Source: Plicaturopsis crispa FD-325 SS-3 (taxonomy: Eukaryota; Basidiomycota; Agaricomycetes; Amylocorticiales; Amylocorticiaceae). Taken from it: a DNA stretch of 64,000 nt. Position numbers and translations under genes: made by a program. Positions 7,347 to 15,996 of this stretch are shown here, piece after piece. Numbering within the stretch: the first letter of the stretch is position 1; every line of letters begins with the position of its first letter. Under the pieces are notes generated by a model. That model saw only the letters and a program-made list of their open reading frames with translations, searched no databases and was not told the origin of the DNA. The stretch covers positions 406,128-470,127 of the forward strand of contig KN832570.1 in assembly GCA_000827205.1 (NCBI GenBank), written 5' to 3'.

Positions 7347-9172
7347 TCACTCCCCCAGGACAGGCGAAAAGAACACCTGCCGATCGTACGTGGGCTCCGT
7401 GCACACCACCTCGTCGATGCGCCCCTCCAGCCACGCCACCACATCCGTGCCGATGCTCGCGCACTCGTACAGCTCGAGCCGCTGCAGGCGCACGGGCGCG
7501 CCGCTCGCCGCGCCCGCGTCCGGGTTGCGCGCCGCGACCATCTGCACGAGCTGCTTCACGCCCTCGCCGTGCGTGTGGCACGACTTCATCGCGAGGCCCG
7601 TCAGTGCAGGGCACAGCCAGTCCTCCCCATCCGCCAGCGCGCCCAGGAGCGGCTCAAACGGCGTCCCGCCCACGCGCAGCGTCCGCAGGTGCCGCAGCTC
7701 CGCGAGGAACGTCCACGAGATCACGATCCCCGAGCCGTAGTACGACAGCGACGTCGCGCTGCCGCCGTACGCGACCGCGAGCGTGGTCAGCGGCGGGTTG
7801 TTCGACCGCACGAGCAGGTTCGTGATCGTGTCCTCGATGGGGTCCCGCGCCTCGATGTCGAGCGTCAGCTGCTCGAGCGTTGGGGCTATCAGTGACTCGA
7901 GTAGTTGCGACAGGAGGTAGTGCCCGCCCATCGACAAATTGGCCAGTCGCGGGAGGGACACGGGCGACAGCGGGAGGATGGCGGCAATTACCGCTGCGAA
8001 ATGTATGGACAGCGAGATCAGGCCTGGGTTAGCAGAGAGAATATGGAGGATGCGGTCGAGGGGAAAATGACCCGTGGGGAGTGCATGCAGAGTGAGCGAG
8101 GTGAGATTGGTCCGGAACATTGGCGACGACCACTTGAACGGCATGTACCGCAGCGTGAGCGTGTCGAGATTCGGTAGCGCAAAAGTAGAGTTTGCAGCCG
8201 CACTCGGCAGCCACAGCCAGTCGGAGTAAAATGCAGGCTCCGCACACGAGACTTCGAACTCCTTCAGCAACGGCGCGTCTCCTGTGGGCACTCGTCAGAA
8301 GTCATCGTGCATCGCAGCGCCCTGTCATGGCGTACCGAGGATGCTCTTGAGCGCGAGAATGCTCGCGAATTGCTTCTCAAAGCGGAACACGAACCGCTCC
8401 CACCGGTGCATCTGCTCCACCAGGTAGTACACCGCGATGTGCCCCCAGTGCATGCCTGTCCGCACGGTGGAATTGCCCGCTTTCTCTCCGTTGCCGCGGT
8501 ACATCGGTGGAGACGGCGGCACGACCACGGGCGTCTGCAAGTGGTGCATCGCTGGAGGGTGCGTCGCGGTATGCCAAAAGGGAGTAGGCGGAGTCGGCGT
8601 CCGCCGCCTCCGAGTCTGCGCTAACTTGGTCTCATTTTTACCGACCTGCAGGAATATCTCGATGTCCAGCGGAGTCAGCGAGCCCGAGCGCTCGAGCCAG
8701 AGGCGGATGGTGTCCGCAGACGCGTGCTGGGTGGTGACGAGCCGAATCTGTCGTGGCGTCAGATGTGCACCGTCGGCATGCGCGCGCGGGGGTCACGTAC
8801 TTTGCTCCAGATGCGCGGCATCGCAAACGTGAGGCGGCGCCAGTGCCTGCACACGCCGCTGAGCACCCACGCCGCACATGCATACTCGTCAAATGCGGCG
8901 TTGAACACGACTCTGACGAGCTCGTCCGGAAGCCGTCTGATCGGTGCTACATATGCCCGTGTTTGGGCGACCGCCTGCTCGACCTGAGACTTTTCCTGCT
9001 GGAGAGCAGCTATAGTGCGCTTGTACGACGAGACAATCTCTGCAAGCGCAGACTCGGTCGTAGCAATACGGCCGGTTAGGCTTTCGAGCTCGGCCAATTT
9101 CGAGGACAGTTCGTGGCGGGCAGACCGCAGCGTGGCCTCGGTAGGCGGTTCTGGGAACTGTGAATAGGGCAT
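7347..9172 (-). CDS. F-box protein with leucine-rich C-terminal region
   Basis: Four exons (9172-8801, 8747-8646, 8534-8336, 8281-7347) join with matching phases into one frame of about 535 codons. Residues 10-60 look like a coiled coil (heptad-like ELSSKLAELESLTGRIATTE). Then comes an F-box: IRRLPDELVRVVFNAAFDE, a Trp-rich SGVCRHWRRLTF and MPRIWSK. This is the classic Agaricomycete arrangement of a short coiled coil before the F-box. The remainder carries LRR-like strands (FALPNLDTLTLRYMPF, LPRLANLSMGG, LRHLRTLRVGG, RLQRLELYEC). F-box proteins bind Skp1 and present substrates to SCF ubiquitin ligases; the substrate here is unknown. Mushroom fungi carry many rapidly diverging paralogues of this type. 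Confidence 0.85.
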
Positions 9173-9474
9173 TCGGTGTAAATTCTGTGTGTCACAGAGC
9201 GGCCCAGAGTGCAGACTTGCATGAACTCGCTATACAGCAGTAGAATATAGCGAAAACAAGGGCTCCAGACTTCAAATACAAGGCGACAAGCTGGCACATT
9301 TCCCCGCACGAAATTGGCGCGGAGTTCGAAAGCATGACCAGGCCAATATTTCGCCTCATAGTGTCCTTGCTCTCGATACTTACCTGCTTCATACACCTGT
9401 GCTTAGCCTGTGCTATTCGTTTTTTTTCCAGTGCTTTGTGAAGGCTTTCGCTCTCCTACCATCTACCAGCAGTA

Positions 9475-10260
9475 ATGAGCGCGTCAGAAATGCCTCAGAC
9501 GCGTCGTTTCGACGAGAATTACTTCGCCAATCTGTCATTCGGTGTCGGTACCCCGCCGCAAACACCCAGTCCCGCAAAGCAGCCATCGACCCCTCGCGGT
9601 TATTTCGCCTTTCCGCCTGGGTCCAGCAGATCTGCTAGGGCCGAGCGCGACCCGCTCACAGACGCGGCAGACGGCAACGAGCGGTCCGGCGAAGCACGGC
9701 GTCCTGGGAAGGGCGGCCTGCCTGCCGACGCAGCGCGGGACGAGCAGGAGGCCAGGGCACGGCATATACAGCGCGAGAAGGAGATCGAGATCGCAAGCGC
9801 AGGCGAGATCGAGTGGGTGCGCTCGGGCGGTGTCCTCCGCGACGCACAGGGGCGGCGGGACAAGGTGCGTACCGCGCAGATCCTCGCGGAGATCCGCCTG
9901 GTGGAGGAGGAGCAGCGCCTCACTGCGGTCTGGGAGGAGCACGAGCGGCGCTGGCGCACACTCCTCGCGTCCCACGACGACGTCCTCACGTTTCGCGATA
10001 TCCCGTGGCCGCTGCACCCGCCCCCGTCGTCCCCCGCCGACCTCGTGCCCGCGAAGATCACGGAATTCCTCCTCGCACCGCTGCGCGTGCGGTCGTGCAC
10101 GGTGTCGAAACGGGATAGGCTGCGGACGGCGATGCTGCGCTGGCACCCGGACAAGATTACGCCGCTGCTCAGCGATAGGGTCGCCGAGGACGACGCGGGG
10201 GCCGTGCGGGATGGCATCAACGTCGTATTCAACGCTTGCCTGGGAGCTCTACACGCATGA
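9475..10260 (+). CDS. NFKBIL1-like / J-like domain protein
   Basis: A single-exon frame of 261 residues. The N-terminal 90 residues are disordered and rich in Pro, Ser, Arg. The middle is strongly charged and helical (DEQEARARHIQREKEIEIAS and following). The C-terminal part has FRDIPWPLHPPPSS, then KITEFLLAPLRVRS and MLRWHPDKITPLLSDRVAED. That arrangement, with a WHPDK J-domain-like signature after an IPWP segment, resembles the C-terminal region of NF-kappa-B inhibitor-like protein 1 and its fungal relatives, whose role in fungi is unclear. It is divergent from the F-box gene, with 302 bp between starts, and convergent with the next gene, with 165 bp between stops. The frame ends in a short Ala-rich tail; a missed 3' intron is possible. 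Confidence 0.62.
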   Translation: MSASEMPQTRRFDENYFANLSFGVGTPPQTPSPAKQPSTPRGYFAFPPGSSRSARAERDPLTDAADGNERSGEARRPGKGGLPADAARDEQEARARHIQREKEIEIASAGEIEWVRSGGVLRDAQGRRDKVRTAQILAEIRLVEEEQRLTAVWEEHERRWRTLLASHDDVLTFRDIPWPLHPPPSSPADLVPAKITEFLLAPLRVRSCTVSKRDRLRTAMLRWHPDKITPLLSDRVAEDDAGAVRDGINVVFNACLGALHA

Positions 10261-10425
10261 TAATGTGCCGTGAAATATCATTCAATCCTGTATTTAATAA
10301 CCATACAATAATACGCATTAAAAAAAGACGATACTCTGCCTCGTACACGGACGCACAAATGCGTGCAGCCTGTACGCATAACCTTGATAAACCGATACTG
10401 AGAAAAAAGCGGGGGCGCGGCAGGC

Positions 10426-13400
10426 TCAAGGCGCCTCCATCTTGACGACATGTTTTCGTGGTTCGAGCCTGAAGCGCTGCTTTGCTTTTGCCTGATGCTT
10501 CTTGATCCGCGCTCTGCACCGGTCGCACATAGCGCCGACAGCATCGTCCGGGATGGCGCGATGACACGACTTCCCAACGCATTGCCGCTGCAACACATAG
10601 TATATCAGAAACCCCAAACTGCAAACGTCAACGAAAATCAAGACCACTCACACTATGCGATCCGCCCACCCCCGCCGCGTCCTGCATCACGACGTCGCTC
10701 GGGGACTCCGACGTCGGGCTAGGAGTGATAGTAGTCGACGCACTTTGCTGGGCAGGCGGCGGTACAGACCTAAACACGGAGAACGACGAGGTCGAACTCG
10801 ACGACATGCTCGGCTGAGGGTCCTTCTGGTGGCGAAAGACCGAGAATGACGAGGTTGGGACGGTGCCCGCCGCGACGTTGGCGTTCGCGGGCTCGGCCGA
10901 CTTCTGTGCAACCTCCTGCGGCTGCGGTGTCTGGCTGGTGGCTTGTGGTTTCTCAGCAGCGTCCGCGGGCTTTTTAGCTGATGCATCTGGTTCCACCGCT
11001 TTCCTACGCTTGCGCTTCCGATCGGTCGTACTATTCGTCGGTGTTTTCTGCGACCAGCAGCAGGTAAGCATTCAAGGGACACAAGCCATGATAATCCGAA
11101 AAACTGTACCGTAGGCTGGAACTCAAGGCGCCGATAGTCACTGGCACTGGCCGGGGGCTTGGGCGGAGCATAGGGCGCCGCGCCGTAAGGCTGCAGCGGG
11201 GTCTGCGAGGTGGGGTTATACTGGGGCCCCGATTGCGCCATGGCATACGGATACGGCCCATAGGGCGGAGGAGCATAAGGATAATGGGCATATGGCTGAG
11301 GCGGGTACGGCGGCTGGGGCTGGCCGGCTGAAGCCGAGGTGCCCGCCTTCGGCGGCGCTGCAGTGTATGGCGGCATATTGTACGGCGGGGGCATGTAGTA
11401 CGGAAACTGGTACGGCGGCTGTCCATAAGGAGGATATGGCGCGGCCCCAGGCAGCGGGGCGCTGCTGGGGGCGGCTGCAGGCTCTTTCTTGGGTTTGGGA
11501 GCCTTCTTGGCACGTTTCTTGCGAGGACGGGGACCCTCAGCGGTGGACTCCGTTTCGGCGGATGCTCCAGCGGTATCGGCTGCCACTATAGATGAGTAGT
11601 AAGATCAGATCCCAGTCCCGTAATGGTAAGAATGTGACGCACGTTCTGACGTGCTTGCTTCGTTGGCGGACGGTGTGTCTGCGGGAAGAGACTGGGACAA
11701 GCAAGGGAAAGATCAAAAACCAAAGGAAAGGCGAATCCAGTTCATGGCATACCTCAGACGTTGCCCCATCAGGTACCAAGGGGTTGGTGAACGGTGCGTC
11801 AGTAGTAGAGTCTCCTTCGGTCTTTGCTTTCTTCGAAGCTTTGCTAGCAGGACGGCGAAGGGCCGGCGACTCGCCCGGCACCGGTTTGCCTTGCTGCCGC
11901 AGGCGCTGGTTCCTCCTTACAATCCTGTCGTTCTCCCTGCACGCATCGCACATCTTCCAGGGCACCGCAGGCGAGAGGAGATTGTAGCACGGCTTCACGG
12001 AGCAGACGTGATTCGTGCGACGCGAGCCACGCGCAGGTGCTGGTACTCCGCTGGTATCGATACTACTCCCGGACGCCTGAGAAACGCTTATGAGTACTTA
12101 GACAGGTTATTGGTGAAGGAAATATGCAAACCTCGTTCTCGTCTTCGTCTGCGGTTTCCCCATCGGCATCATGTTCTAAATCTCTTGGTTCATGCGTGAA
12201 TAGAGGATCGCCTGTCTTGAGCCTCTTCTTCTTTCCTTCCCCGTCGCCTGGTGGGTGTTTAGACTCTTCACGGCTCCTGTTAGGACCGCGCGCCTTGGAC
12301 ACCTTCTCGCGCACGCGCTTCAGCTTACTGTGGTGCCGGTTCTGAAGGCGATGCTGGTCACAGCGCCTGAATAGGTAGTTGCCGGGCAAGAGTTTGTGGC
12401 AGTGGGAGACGGTGCACATGCGCGCAGGGAGGGGGTGACCTTGGTTCATTTCGTTCAGCTGGCTCGGATGGGGCTGCCATTCATCCAAGCTCCGCGCCCA
12501 AGCATCCCATTCTTCCTCCGGAGCTTCTGCGAGGGACTTTGCGCGACACTCAGTTATGCGTCGGGTGAGTGATGGAATTTGGAGGTGCTTACTGGCAGCC
12601 CTGCATCAGCTCTGCGTTTATCCTCAGCCTCCCTAAGTTTCTCCAACTCGGCGTCAGTCTCAACGCGTTCACGCTTCCATTTGGCGCGCTTAGTGATTCC
12701 GTAGGCGCGATACCTATCCCGGCAGGGCTCGCACATCTTGAAAAAGTAGTCCCCAGGCATGATCGTTTTGCATCCTTTCACAGAGCAGAATCGGGGCGGG
12801 TACGACTCGTCTTTTCCTGTGTCCTGTTCGTGGGGAGCGTCGGGGTCCTCTTCCTCTTCGTGCGGCTGGCCGTCGAACGACGGACCGGCACTAGGCGTAG
12901 CATCCTGCGGGAGAGCTGAACTGGAGGCTTGAGACGCGTTGTTGTCTATAGAAAATTGTAGGGGCGGCAATGTGAGGGCACCTGCTAACTCAGAAGTCCG
13001 GGACGCGAAGAGACGCGGGTCTAAGACAGTTGTGGGCCAAGGGGATAGAGAGCCATCTGGTATGTGAGCCGTGTGCTATTCCTAATATTCAGCATTTGAG
13101 AGTGATCGCAGCTAGCTTGGATTGACTTGCCTCTTTCTCGAGACTTGGATCTATGGGAATGTGGGACGGGCCTGCGTCATGTGTATCATGGCCGAGGGAA
13201 TTATTCGGTGTGGGCTGAGCTGGTACCCAAGCTGCGGGCTCCTCTGCATTAGCAGAGACCGGCGCGAGCCCCTGGATGGCATCCTTCTCTCTCTTGCGCT
13301 TTGCACGCTTCGTGCTCGCATAAATTCGATGGCGTCCACGGCAACCCTCGCACATTTTTGTGCCCGAGTCCGGCTGCAGCGTCTTGGAGCATCCCCGCAC

Positions 13401-13628
13401 TGAACACACCCGTGGCGGTCCTGCGTTTGGCATTGACGCAATCGTGTCTGCGACGGGGAGCCCGTCTCCCCTATCGGCATTGGTGCCATTTGCGAGCGTG
13501 CGGTCTGCGGTAGGGGAATCGTTTTGGTTTGTGTAATGGCTCTCGAAGGACAAGGGGAAATAGTCCGTAACGCTCATCGTAATTCCTCCAGGCTCGCGCA
13601 GTCGGACGTTGGGCCAGATTGTAGACAC
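10426..13628 (-). CDS. Multi-module Cys-rich protein with five C-x4-C-x12-C-x2-[C/H] motifs
   Basis: I join eight minus-strand exons: 13628-13127, 13056-12593, 12548-12132, 12076-11753, a 28-nt microexon 11678-11651, 11585-11110, 11047-10652 and 10587-10426. Phases fit throughout, although the first intron donor, the exon-3 acceptor and the microexon are the least certain parts. The product holds five copies of one module: CSVRGCSKTL..KMCEGC, CSVKGCKTIM..KMCEPC, CTVSHCHKLL..RRCDQH, CSVKPCYNLL..KMCDAC and CVGKSCHRAI..AMCDRC. Spacing is always C-x4-C-x12-C-x2-C (His in the third). Each is followed by a Lys/Arg-rich helix such as TKRAKRKRE. Between modules 4 and 5 lies a Pro/Tyr-rich stretch, then a Ser-rich repeat containing SSFSVFR twice. 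Metal binding and a nuclear or nucleic-acid role are inferences from Cys spacing and basic tails. I recognise similar hypothetical proteins in basidiomycetes but no named family. Confidence 0.7.
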
Positions 13629-13842
13629 GAAGAGAGATTGGGATTAGGTTTAGTTCAGACTCAGCCGGTCTAACACTCCAAACTCAGCTCGGCATCGCGT
13701 CGGCACGCCGCAGCCCCAGACACTCTGCACAGAATCGCACGGAAAGATACATGTTACACTGTACACAGTACAAGACGAGTATGAAGGGTTATAGTGAAAG
13801 CACCATCACGGTCTATATATCACTGGTCCAAATTGCAACGCG

Positions 13843-15996
13843 TCAGGAGAAACTGGCGACTGCCGAAGCGACTCTCTCGAGGCCCATCTCCAAGGATGCC
13901 AGCGTCATGGCTGCGGTATCTGGAGCTGAAATGCAATATCTGGTTACGCACTCCTTTTAGAGATTGTGAGCCGTACCTCCTTCCATCTCTGTACGCCATC
14001 TCTCTAGTGCAGTCCGCAACGGGGCCAGTAAATTCGCTTCTACATTCGCAAGAACATCCACATCGCGCACCCTCGTCTACCAGCGCAATCAAATATCTTG
14101 TAAGCGTGCGCAAGAAGAAAGGATTCTGGAGACGCACGCGGTTGCGAGTGTCTCGCTGCAGCAGGACATAATAGAACGAGAGCGCCTCCGCAAGCCGCGC
14201 CGGCTCGCGCGACTCCGACTCGATAAACTCCTCTGCTGAGATCGCACTCGCGAATAGGTCGCGTGGACTGGGCTGCAAGAGGATGGGCGCAAAAGTCTGC
14301 AGCAGAAGCGGGGAGGCGAATACACTCTCGTCCTGCCCGGCAAGCGCACCCAGGACGGCGTCTTTCACCAGCCCGATGCCGGCTACGCGCATCTGCGGGA
14401 ACGCTGCGTCCTCGGAGGTGAGTGTTCGGAGTGCATCGAGTCGTGCGGGTGGAGGGAGCTGGTTAATCGCGAGACCTAGGAGGCGGAAGCAGAGGTGGCG
14501 TGTAGGCGGGTCACTGTGCGCTGAGGCGAGCGGGTCGAGCATGTCGATGAGGGGTATTAGGAGCTCTGGCGAGAGGTTGTTCGAGGAGTGCGCGGCGGTA
14601 TCACGGGGAGAAGGAACAAGCGTCCGAAGGAGCACTGCCAGTGTTTCGTCGAGTCCAATGTTACTCCTCAGCGATGTAAGTATAGCGGGGAACAAGTGGG
14701 TCAGCTGTGCTTGCGAGAGGGGGGATTCTTGATCGTAGGCTAGCAAAATGAGAGCACTCAGTGGCGGACTATCTTCGTCATCAGCTACTGCGTGTAGTGC
14801 GGCTGATGCTTCCTGGCCGGGATGAGCCAATGAGTTTTTGAAAATCAAGATCACCAGGCATCACTCACTGCAGCGTGTTTTATGGTACGCTCACCTTCCT
14901 CCCATCCATCTTTGACCGCAGAGCGGAAAACAAGTCGCGGCATAAGGGTCTCAAATGTGCGCTGCGCAATGCTAGATTGGATCCATCGCGCATTGCTCGT
15001 AATTGTCCTGTCGAGTAAGTTACGGAGGCTCCGCTTTTAATGTAGGACTTTAGCGCGCTGTATACGCAGTATCATCACCCCATCACCCACCTCCAACGTC
15101 ACGTAGTGTTGTTGATCATGGGCAGTGTTAGTCATTGCTGCCACCCATGCGACGGATTTGGAGATAAATTGAGACACGGCAGATATCAAATCGCGTCCTG
15201 AGGATTTCGTAGAGTATGAGGAGGCGAGACCGACGGCAGATTCCAGCCCGTATAGAAGCGAATTGACGGTCTCCGCAGGAGTCTTTTTACCGCGTTCTTT
15301 TAGTCGCGGGATGGCTGCACGAAATATGAGCTTTTATAGTAAGGGACGTGTGGTATGCTTACATGCAGCATACAGGAGAACGAGCCGGATCAGTTGCTCG
15401 GGTGGGGAGACCGCTGTATTGTCCGCTTCATTCTCTGCATCCTCGTCCAGCTCAGAGCTGAGTTGTGACTCTAGGCGTTCAACGGCCTCTTGCACAGCGA
15501 GCATGACCTCTCTCGCATTGCTGCATTCGCCCATCAGAGCTAAAACGCCCTTCGACGACTCGTTGGGGCACGTTAGCAAGGAAGGTAGAACATTCAGTGG
15601 GTCCTAAGCGCATATTGGCCATGTAAATACATGATCGAGGACATTTCAGGGTGGATGAACGAACAAGCAGAGATGCAGACCCAGTCGTTGAGAGGGTATG
15701 CAATATGTCTGCGAGAGTAGATCCTGAATCGGCGTCCGTCGCGGCTGTTGCGATGAGTGAGGATAGACCGTTGGTAGCTGCCTGTGCCGGATACGTTAAC
15801 ACATTAACCTCGTTGAGTTGCAGTGGGCACTATGTGGACATTCTTTATTCATCCCTTCCGAGGTGGATTTTAGAATACTTGACGGCGAGATGGATGCGAC
15901 ATTGAGAGCATTCGACGAAAGGCAACAAGTGCTCACCTCTTTGTCTGGGAGCTGGAGAATACCACCCAAAGTGTCTTTTGCGGTTTTCGGGTCCAT
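13843..15996 (-). CDS. YAP/Alf4/glomulin (DUF1760) family protein
   Basis: Eight exons (15996-15937, 15829-15665, 15603-15363, 15314-15091, 15033-14869, 14812-14071, 14039-13977, 13925-13843) give 580 residues with consistent phases. The product looks all-helical. Runs match the basidiomycete DUF1760 pattern: ECSNAREVMLAVQEAVERLE, PPEQLIRLVLLYA, a SIAQRTFETLMPRLVF segment followed by GWEEGE, LSALILLAYDQE and LDETLAVLLRTLVPS. It ends with ANLLAPLRTALERWRTEM. The family includes yeast Ybp1/Ybp2 (Yap1 binding, oxidative stress; Ybp2 also at kinetochores), plant Alf4 and animal glomulin, an inhibitor of cullin-RING ligases. Which role applies here cannot be read from sequence. A degenerate copy of its 5' end is present at about 17525-17620. 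Confidence 0.75.

What the first reader, a model, noticed from the sequence alone, without database searches (positions are those of the whole stretch)
10426..13628. Protein with five exactly spaced C-x4-C-x12-C-x2-[C/H] modules, possibly an undescribed zinc-binding repeat
All five modules keep the spacing 4-12-2 without exception, and each is followed by a Lys/Arg-rich helix. The hydrophobic positions also recur (C-[ST]-V near the first Cys; K-M-C before the third). Such invariance with little other identity points to a metal-coordinating fold. The combination with a Pro/Tyr-rich low-complexity region suggests a nuclear scaffold. I cannot name a described domain with this spacing.
Basis: partly seen in the sequence, partly recalled or inferred. 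Interest (0 to 1): 0.75.

Follow-up and report, generated by a model that had tools for sequence, protein, structure and literature searches.

The report
Five-fold zinc-module protein, fungal family
A fungal gene encodes a protein carrying five copies of a small, probably zinc-holding unit that matches no named domain in the libraries searched, is shared with other genes and probably with a dead jumping gene of the same genome, and most likely grips DNA or chromatin.

Summary
On the minus strand (13577-10426) eight exons give a 913-residue protein with five C-x4-C-x12-C-x2-[C/H] modules; all 19 cysteines lie in them. 100,000 shuffles never gave two modules. The module-bearing frames have no Pfam match at E<=10, and a five-module profile hits 0 of 177,635 distinct PDB sequences. 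AlphaFold models module 2 confidently (pLDDT 94.9): short strands around the first Cys pair, then a long helix starting at the second. A decayed, MULE-like remnant on C3 has one module at its head, though its own frames match no Pfam family. Modules 1-4 sit one per exon with phase-0 introns, suggesting exon duplication. Best reading: a multi-finger, probably DNA-binding nuclear protein. Zinc binding is strongly implied; DNA binding and the transposase link are inferred. Orthologues in other fungi could not be tested.

The parts
13131..13577 (-). exon 1, ATG at 13577; holds module 1
   Evidence: donor GCAAGT (GC-AG intron)
13341..13406 (-). module 1 CSVRGC-x12-CEGC
12593..13075 (-). exon 2, phase 0 on both sides; holds module 2 and long charged helix
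12722..12787 (-). module 2 CSVKGC-x12-CEPC; AlphaFold model pLDDT 94.9
12132..12536 (-). exon 3, phase 0 on both sides; holds module 3 (acceptor AAAG, less usual)
12351..12416 (-). module 3 CTVSHC-x12-CDQH (Cys3His)
11753..12076 (-). exon 4, phase 0 on both sides; holds module 4
11939..12004 (-). module 4 CSVKPC-x12-CDAC
11643..11691 (-). exon 5, 49 nt linker exon
   Evidence: least certain exon
11110..11585 (-). exon 6, basic patch then Pro/Tyr-rich low-complexity stretch
10652..11047 (-). exon 7, KRKRRK basic patch and Ser/Thr/Pro-rich linker
10426..10587 (-). exon 8, module 5 and stop
10516..10581 (-). module 5 CVGKSC-x12-CDRC

Best explanation
This is one fungal gene for a 913-residue, probably nuclear protein with five mononuclear zinc fingers of a family for which no Pfam match was found. 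Each finger is a C-x4-C knuckle between two short strands, then a loop and a long basic helix whose first turn carries the C-x2-[C/H] pair; one zinc per module would be held by four ligands. The fingers probably arose by duplication of single-module, phase-0 exons and act together to hold DNA or chromatin, with the Lys/Arg-rich helices as the contact surface and the Pro/Tyr- and Ser-rich region as a flexible linker or interaction stretch. The same finger is used by a cluster of sister genes and, probably, at the N-terminus of a MULE-like transposase remnant, so it is most likely a DNA-binding unit shared between host genes and transposons. Shown: module repetition, lack of stray cysteines, homology among the window modules, B5/B6 and most C-x2-C modules, secondary structure of the model of module 2. 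Inferred: zinc, nucleus, DNA contact, the tie to the transposase and the direction of any exchange.
For: Modules and gene model. Chance control. All Cys in modules. Leave-one-out and Cys-fixed shuffles: with the window profile, sister modules B5, B6, C3, D1, D2, E1 are reached by 0 of 500 shuffles each, B4 by 1, B3 by 2, F1 (C3 remnant) by 5; the C-x2-C profile, built without window modules, scores window modules 1-5 above shuffles (2, 0, 0, 0, 0 of 500). hhalign of the five window modules against six C-x2-C modules: probability 97.4 over 39 columns. Model of module 2: mean pLDDT 94.9, strands or bridges at 7-8 and 17-18 on either side of C9-C14, helix 28-69 with C27 just before and C30 in its first turn. 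Own-genome hits with single modules. Transposase remnant: module in the first frame, transposase-like piece downstream on the same strand; that piece matches the C13 element with 30.0 bits against a shuffle maximum of 20.8 (0 of 1000); the C13 element scores 28.4 bits for PF10551 MULE, cut-off 27.6. Modules 1-4 one per exon with phase-0 introns. In sister gene B the best-scoring single intron is phase 0 in 4 of 6 module-to-module intervals; for the other 2 no single intron joined the frames, and one of the 4 (B2-B3) is open unspliced too.
Against: No metal, DNA-binding, localisation or expression data. Foldseek against PDB gave no match at E<=0.001. The C3 remnant's six frames match no Pfam family at E<=1, the PF10551 search of the genome did not list it, and its transposase piece found the C13 element only at E 0.114 in the genome search. 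Of 3 MULE-type loci seen, only this one carries a 4-12-2 module; the C13 element's N-terminal Cys4 motif (C-x2-C-x23-C-x2-C) is not significantly similar (415 of 500 shuffles reach it with the window profile, 53 of 500 with the C-x2-C profile). With the window profile B7, B1 and B2 are no better than shuffles (213, 361, 160 of 500) and C1, C2 only weakly so (13, 38); with the C-x2-C profile B3, B4 and B1 are no better than shuffles (418, 344, 357 of 500) and B2 and B7 are weak (43, 12). The window gene does not show the C-terminal domain of its sisters, so function may differ.
Confidence: 0.6

Rival explanations
1. The modules are zinc-stabilised protein-protein or RNA-binding units of a nuclear scaffold or condensate protein, not DNA fingers; the Pro/Tyr-rich stretch does the assembling.
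For: Pro/Tyr-rich exon 6 and Ser-rich exon 7; the helix after module 2 is very long and mixed-charge, as in interaction helices.
Against: Strong net positive charge after all five modules; a module stands at the head of a MULE-like remnant, a usual place for DNA-binding domains.
Confidence: 0.25
2. The module is a remote member of an already described treble-clef group (XPA/Rad14-like, HNH-associated or GATA-like finger) that the sequence libraries miss.
For: Weak library hits: TIGR00598 rad14 E 0.071 on exon 2, HNH endonuclease phrog_144 E 0.034 on exon 1 and 0.3 on exon 2, DUF2116 'probable treble clef' in 3 of 17 modules, best E 0.02; the helix start carries C-x2-C as in treble clefs.
Against: The rad14 hit has 12.8 bits against a cut-off of 113.15; the model's DSSP shows no hairpin between knuckle and helix.
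Confidence: 0.3
3. The five modules belong to two or more neighbouring genes that the frame-compatible splice model joins by mistake.
For: Module 5 is separated from module 4 by three exons without modules; one intron is GC-AG, one uses an AAG acceptor and exon 5 has only 49 nt.
Against: All seven introns are 55-64 nt, all phases agree, no stop between; modules 1-4 are in adjoining exons with phase-0 introns; exon GC3 0.64 against 0.38-0.52 GC in the introns.
Confidence: 0.08

Closest known systems
Treble-clef zinc fingers (GATA, nuclear receptor, XPA and others)
   Same: Zinc knuckle first, second ligand pair at the start of a helix; one zinc per unit; basic helix
   Different: Knuckle is C-x4-C in this gene; the model has a loop instead of the primary beta-hairpin; no significant sequence match
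CW/E7/Ash2L-type mononuclear zinc sites (as described in passages of PMC4999995)
   Different: No sequence or Foldseek match to them appeared here; long basic helix; several copies
MULE transposases with zinc-finger and FAR1-like domains
   Same: A module stands at the head of a MULE-like remnant (C3) in this genome
   Different: Window gene shows no DDE, SWIM or FAR1-like part, and no shared inverted 14-mer was found in the flanks tested
Plant EFFECTOR OF TRANSCRIPTION proteins (passages of PMC6585611)
   Same: Variable number of short Cys/His repeats reported to bind zinc and DNA; lineage-specific regulator
   Different: Plant-specific, with a GIY-YIG domain; no sequence relation was tested here

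Membership tests
Treble-clef zinc finger | zinc knuckle, loop, primary beta-hairpin, helix; two ligands from knuckle, two from helix N-terminus (definition from passages of PMC4999995) | tested here: inconclusive
   DSSP of the model has short strands around the knuckle and a helix with the second ligand pair at its start, but only a loop between them; coordinates and side-chain geometry were not seen; Foldseek found no match at E<=0.001
GATA finger | C-x2-C-x17/18-C-x2-C (recalled) | tested here: not met
   All five modules are 4-12-2; no Pfam match of the module-bearing frames
Zn2Cys6 fungal regulator | six Cys binding two zincs (recalled) | tested here: not met
   Four ligands per module, no other Cys in the protein; no Pfam match
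XPA/Rad14 | TIGR00598 above its cut-off of 113.15 bits | tested here: not met
   12.8 bits on exon 2
MULE transposase | MULE (DDE) domain in the protein | tested here: not met
   No match to PF10551 among the 7 frames that hold exons 1-4 and 6-8; the 16 residues of exon 5 were not scanned; PF10551 places in the genome do not include the window
MULE transposase | terminal inverted repeats around the gene | tested here: inconclusive
   No shared inverted 14-mer and one 11-mer between 8401-10430 and 13571-15600; only exact words in that span were tested
Module family shared by window gene, C5 cluster and C3 remnant (unnamed) | C-x2..4-C-x11..14-C-x2-[CH] followed by a basic stretch, scoring above Cys-fixed shuffles | tested here: met
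   Window modules by leave-one-out; with the window profile B3-B6, C3, D1, D2, E1 (at most 2 of 500) and F1 (5 of 500); C1, C2 weak; B1, B2, B7, G1 not; with the C-x2-C profile B3 and B4 also not
Any Pfam domain | match above gathering score | tested here: not met
   0 of the 5 module-bearing frames match at E<=10; 17 modules one by one, best E 0.0028 (whose family table gives no scores or cut-offs)

The most novel reading that the evidence does not exclude
An undescribed zinc-finger family of mushroom-lineage fungi, exchanged between host genes and MULE-type transposons, that has grown by single-exon duplication into multi-finger host proteins; the window gene would be a transposon-related, domesticated multi-finger chromatin or transcription regulator comparable in origin to the plant factors FHY3/FAR1 (called transposase-derived in the abstract of PMC6000157 listed).
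Probability: 0.35. Interest if true: 0.65.

Novelty: new variant of a known kind. Interest (0 to 1): 0.42.

Why it matters
Much of the gene-regulatory machinery of mushroom-forming fungi is unnamed (own judgement). A zinc module without a Pfam match, repeated in several genes and present at the head of a MULE-like remnant, would add a DNA-binding family to annotation and give a testable case of transposon-host exchange of DNA-binding domains in fungi.

Tried and rejected

Literature: listings (two found no paper); passages only of PMC6446971, PMC6585611, PMC4999995, PMC5604158, PMC3998117, PMC12730594. None of the listings or passages seen names this module; the library holds open-licence papers only. 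My recollection that similar proteins are common among hypothetical proteins of mushroom-forming fungi comes from no call and could not be tested: no collection of fungal genomes other than the window's own genome was at hand.

Full report
What is there. The stretch 10426-13628 holds, on the minus strand, a gene that can be read as eight exons, 13577-13131, 13075-12593, 12536-12132, 12076-11753, 11691-11643, 11585-11110, 11047-10652 and 10587-10426, giving 913 residues (a first set of borders did not close). All seven introns are 55-64 nt; the first is GC-AG and the second has an AAG acceptor. The five modules start at residues 58, 246, 351, 470 and 863. Nineteen of the twenty ligands are Cys, one is His, and the protein has no other cysteine. 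Shuffling the protein 100,000 times gave 38 pattern matches and never two together. Third codon positions of modules 1 and 2 agree in 36% of codons against 69% and 67% at positions 1 and 2: the peptide, not the DNA, has been kept.

The repeat is a true family within the gene. Leaving each module out in turn, a profile of the other four scores it above Cys-fixed shuffles (0, 0, 0, 0, 2 of 500 shuffles reach it). Modules 1-4 occupy one exon each and the four introns after them are phase 0, as expected from duplication of a symmetrical exon. In sister gene B the best-scoring single intron is phase 0 in 4 of 6 module-to-module intervals; the other 2 gave no single-intron solution, and one of the 4 intervals is open unspliced as well.

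No named domain. The five module-bearing frames match nothing in Pfam at E<=10. Of 17 family modules scanned singly the best hit is a double zinc ribbon at E 0.0028. PDB sequences give nothing convincing. NCBIfam and PHROGs give only weak hints of XPA and HNH-type fingers and a family of unknown function.

Structure. With 17 aligned modules, AlphaFold gives module 2 a mean pLDDT of 94.9, pTM 0.61. DSSP marks strands or bridges at residues 7-8 and 17-18, on either side of the C9-x4-C14 knuckle (that they pair with each other is my inference), nothing regular at 19-27, and a helix at 28-69 with C27 just before it and C30 in its first turn. This would suit one tetrahedral zinc per module. I saw secondary structure and confidence only, not coordinates. 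The topology resembles a treble clef without its primary hairpin, or the hairpin-turn-plus-helix sites described for CW, E7 and Ash2L in passages of PMC4999995. Foldseek against PDB found nothing at E<=0.001. Only module 2 was modelled.

Relatives. Only the window's own genome (G000, 33.2 Mb) could be searched for eukaryotic relatives. It holds at least four sister genes on contig C5 between 372 and 390 kb: B (locus L006) with seven Cys4 motifs, four of them 4-12-2, one 4-14-2 and two beginning C-x2-C; C (three full C-x2-C modules, minus strand), D (two) and E (one). Scored with the window profile, 6 of 15 non-window modules are reached by no shuffle (B5, B6, C3, D1, D2, E1), B4 by 1, B3 by 2, F1 by 5, C1 by 13 and C2 by 38 of 500; B1, B2, B7 and the C13 element's motif are not distinguishable from shuffles. 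The C-x2-C profile, built without window modules, scores all five window modules above shuffles (2, 0, 0, 0, 0 of 500), as it does B5, B6 (0, 0) and F1 (2), but not B3, B4 or B1 (418, 344, 357 of 500), and B2, B7 and the C13 motif only weakly (43, 12, 53). So spacing 4-12-2 is a variant, not the rule, and gene B's outer motifs are diverged or unrelated. Sister genes B, C, D and E share a second, unnamed domain after the modules (B against the C/D/E profile 0 of 1000 shuffles); the window gene does not show it.

Transposase link. Near the end of contig C3 (locus L026:4975-6600) a 4-12-2 module (F1) opens a series of same-strand frames interrupted by stops, of which one (L026:6247-6465) resembles the transposase of a C13 element (30.0 bits, shuffle maximum 20.8, 0 of 1000), although in the genome search the match had only E 0.114. 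The remnant's own six frames match no Pfam family at E<=1, and the genome search with PF10551 lists two places, not this one. The C13 element scores 28.4 bits for PF10551 MULE with cut-off 27.6 when the genome is searched, 26.8 when its frame is scanned, and has a sub-threshold SWIM hit (E 0.028). A third MULE-type locus (C5:422915) scores 24.8 bits for PF10551, under the cut-off, has a sub-threshold FAR1 hit (E 2.7e-5, 25.2 bits against 28.1), and I saw no module in its minus-strand frames over 60 aa. The link module-MULE thus rests on one decayed locus of three MULE-type loci, with F1 itself reached by 5 of 500 (window profile) and 2 of 500 (C-x2-C profile) shuffles.

Mechanism. Four ligands per module and a following stretch rich in Lys/Arg (7-10 of 24 residues) suggest a structural zinc holding a basic helix, used in several copies. 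Nucleic-acid binding is the likeliest use, and a nuclear regulator the likeliest protein; neither is shown. The Pro/Tyr-rich exon 6 and Ser-rich exon 7 look like flexible linkers. The flanks tested share no inverted 14-mer, so the gene does not look like a mobile element now.

Verdict. Its zinc-fold idea is well supported, its 'exact spacing' as a hallmark is not, and its nuclear scaffold is one of several possibilities. The finding is an unnamed zinc-finger family with an interesting spread inside one genome. Whether it is undescribed everywhere could not be settled: the searches and the passages read name no such module.

Noticed in passing
L023/L024/L006 (G000 C5:372383-389900): Cluster of at least four genes with C-x2-C or C-x4-C zinc modules, followed by a shared unnamed C-terminal domain (F/L-x-G-T-Y-S-[IL]-[VI]-A in three of them, then C-G-G-T-V ... 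S/T-H-P-L ... G-Q-K).
   Followed up: partly
L026:4975-6600 (G000 C3, near contig end): Decayed MULE-like transposase remnant with one 4-12-2 module at its head; several stops; no Pfam match of its own.
   Followed up: partly
L028 / L030 (G000 C13:897127-897354 and surroundings): MULE transposase in long open frames, with an N-terminal C-x2-C-x23-C-x2-C motif and a sub-threshold SWIM hit.
   Followed up: partly
L032 (G000 C5:422915-423109 and surroundings): Second MULE-type locus (24.8 bits, under the cut-off) with a sub-threshold FAR1-like domain.
   Followed up: partly
window 9475-10260, + strand: Neighbouring open frame whose C-terminal part holds a WHPDK stretch reminiscent of J-like proteins (recalled); no Pfam match at E<=0.01.
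   Followed up: no
window 13820-14860, - strand: Frame matching PF08568 (YAP/Alf4/glomulin family), E 5e-07, above its cut-off.
   Followed up: no
BFVD fold matches of the module: Several giant-virus proteins (Barrevirus, Edafosvirus, Tupanvirus) align closely with the module model though with E above 0.4.
   Followed up: no
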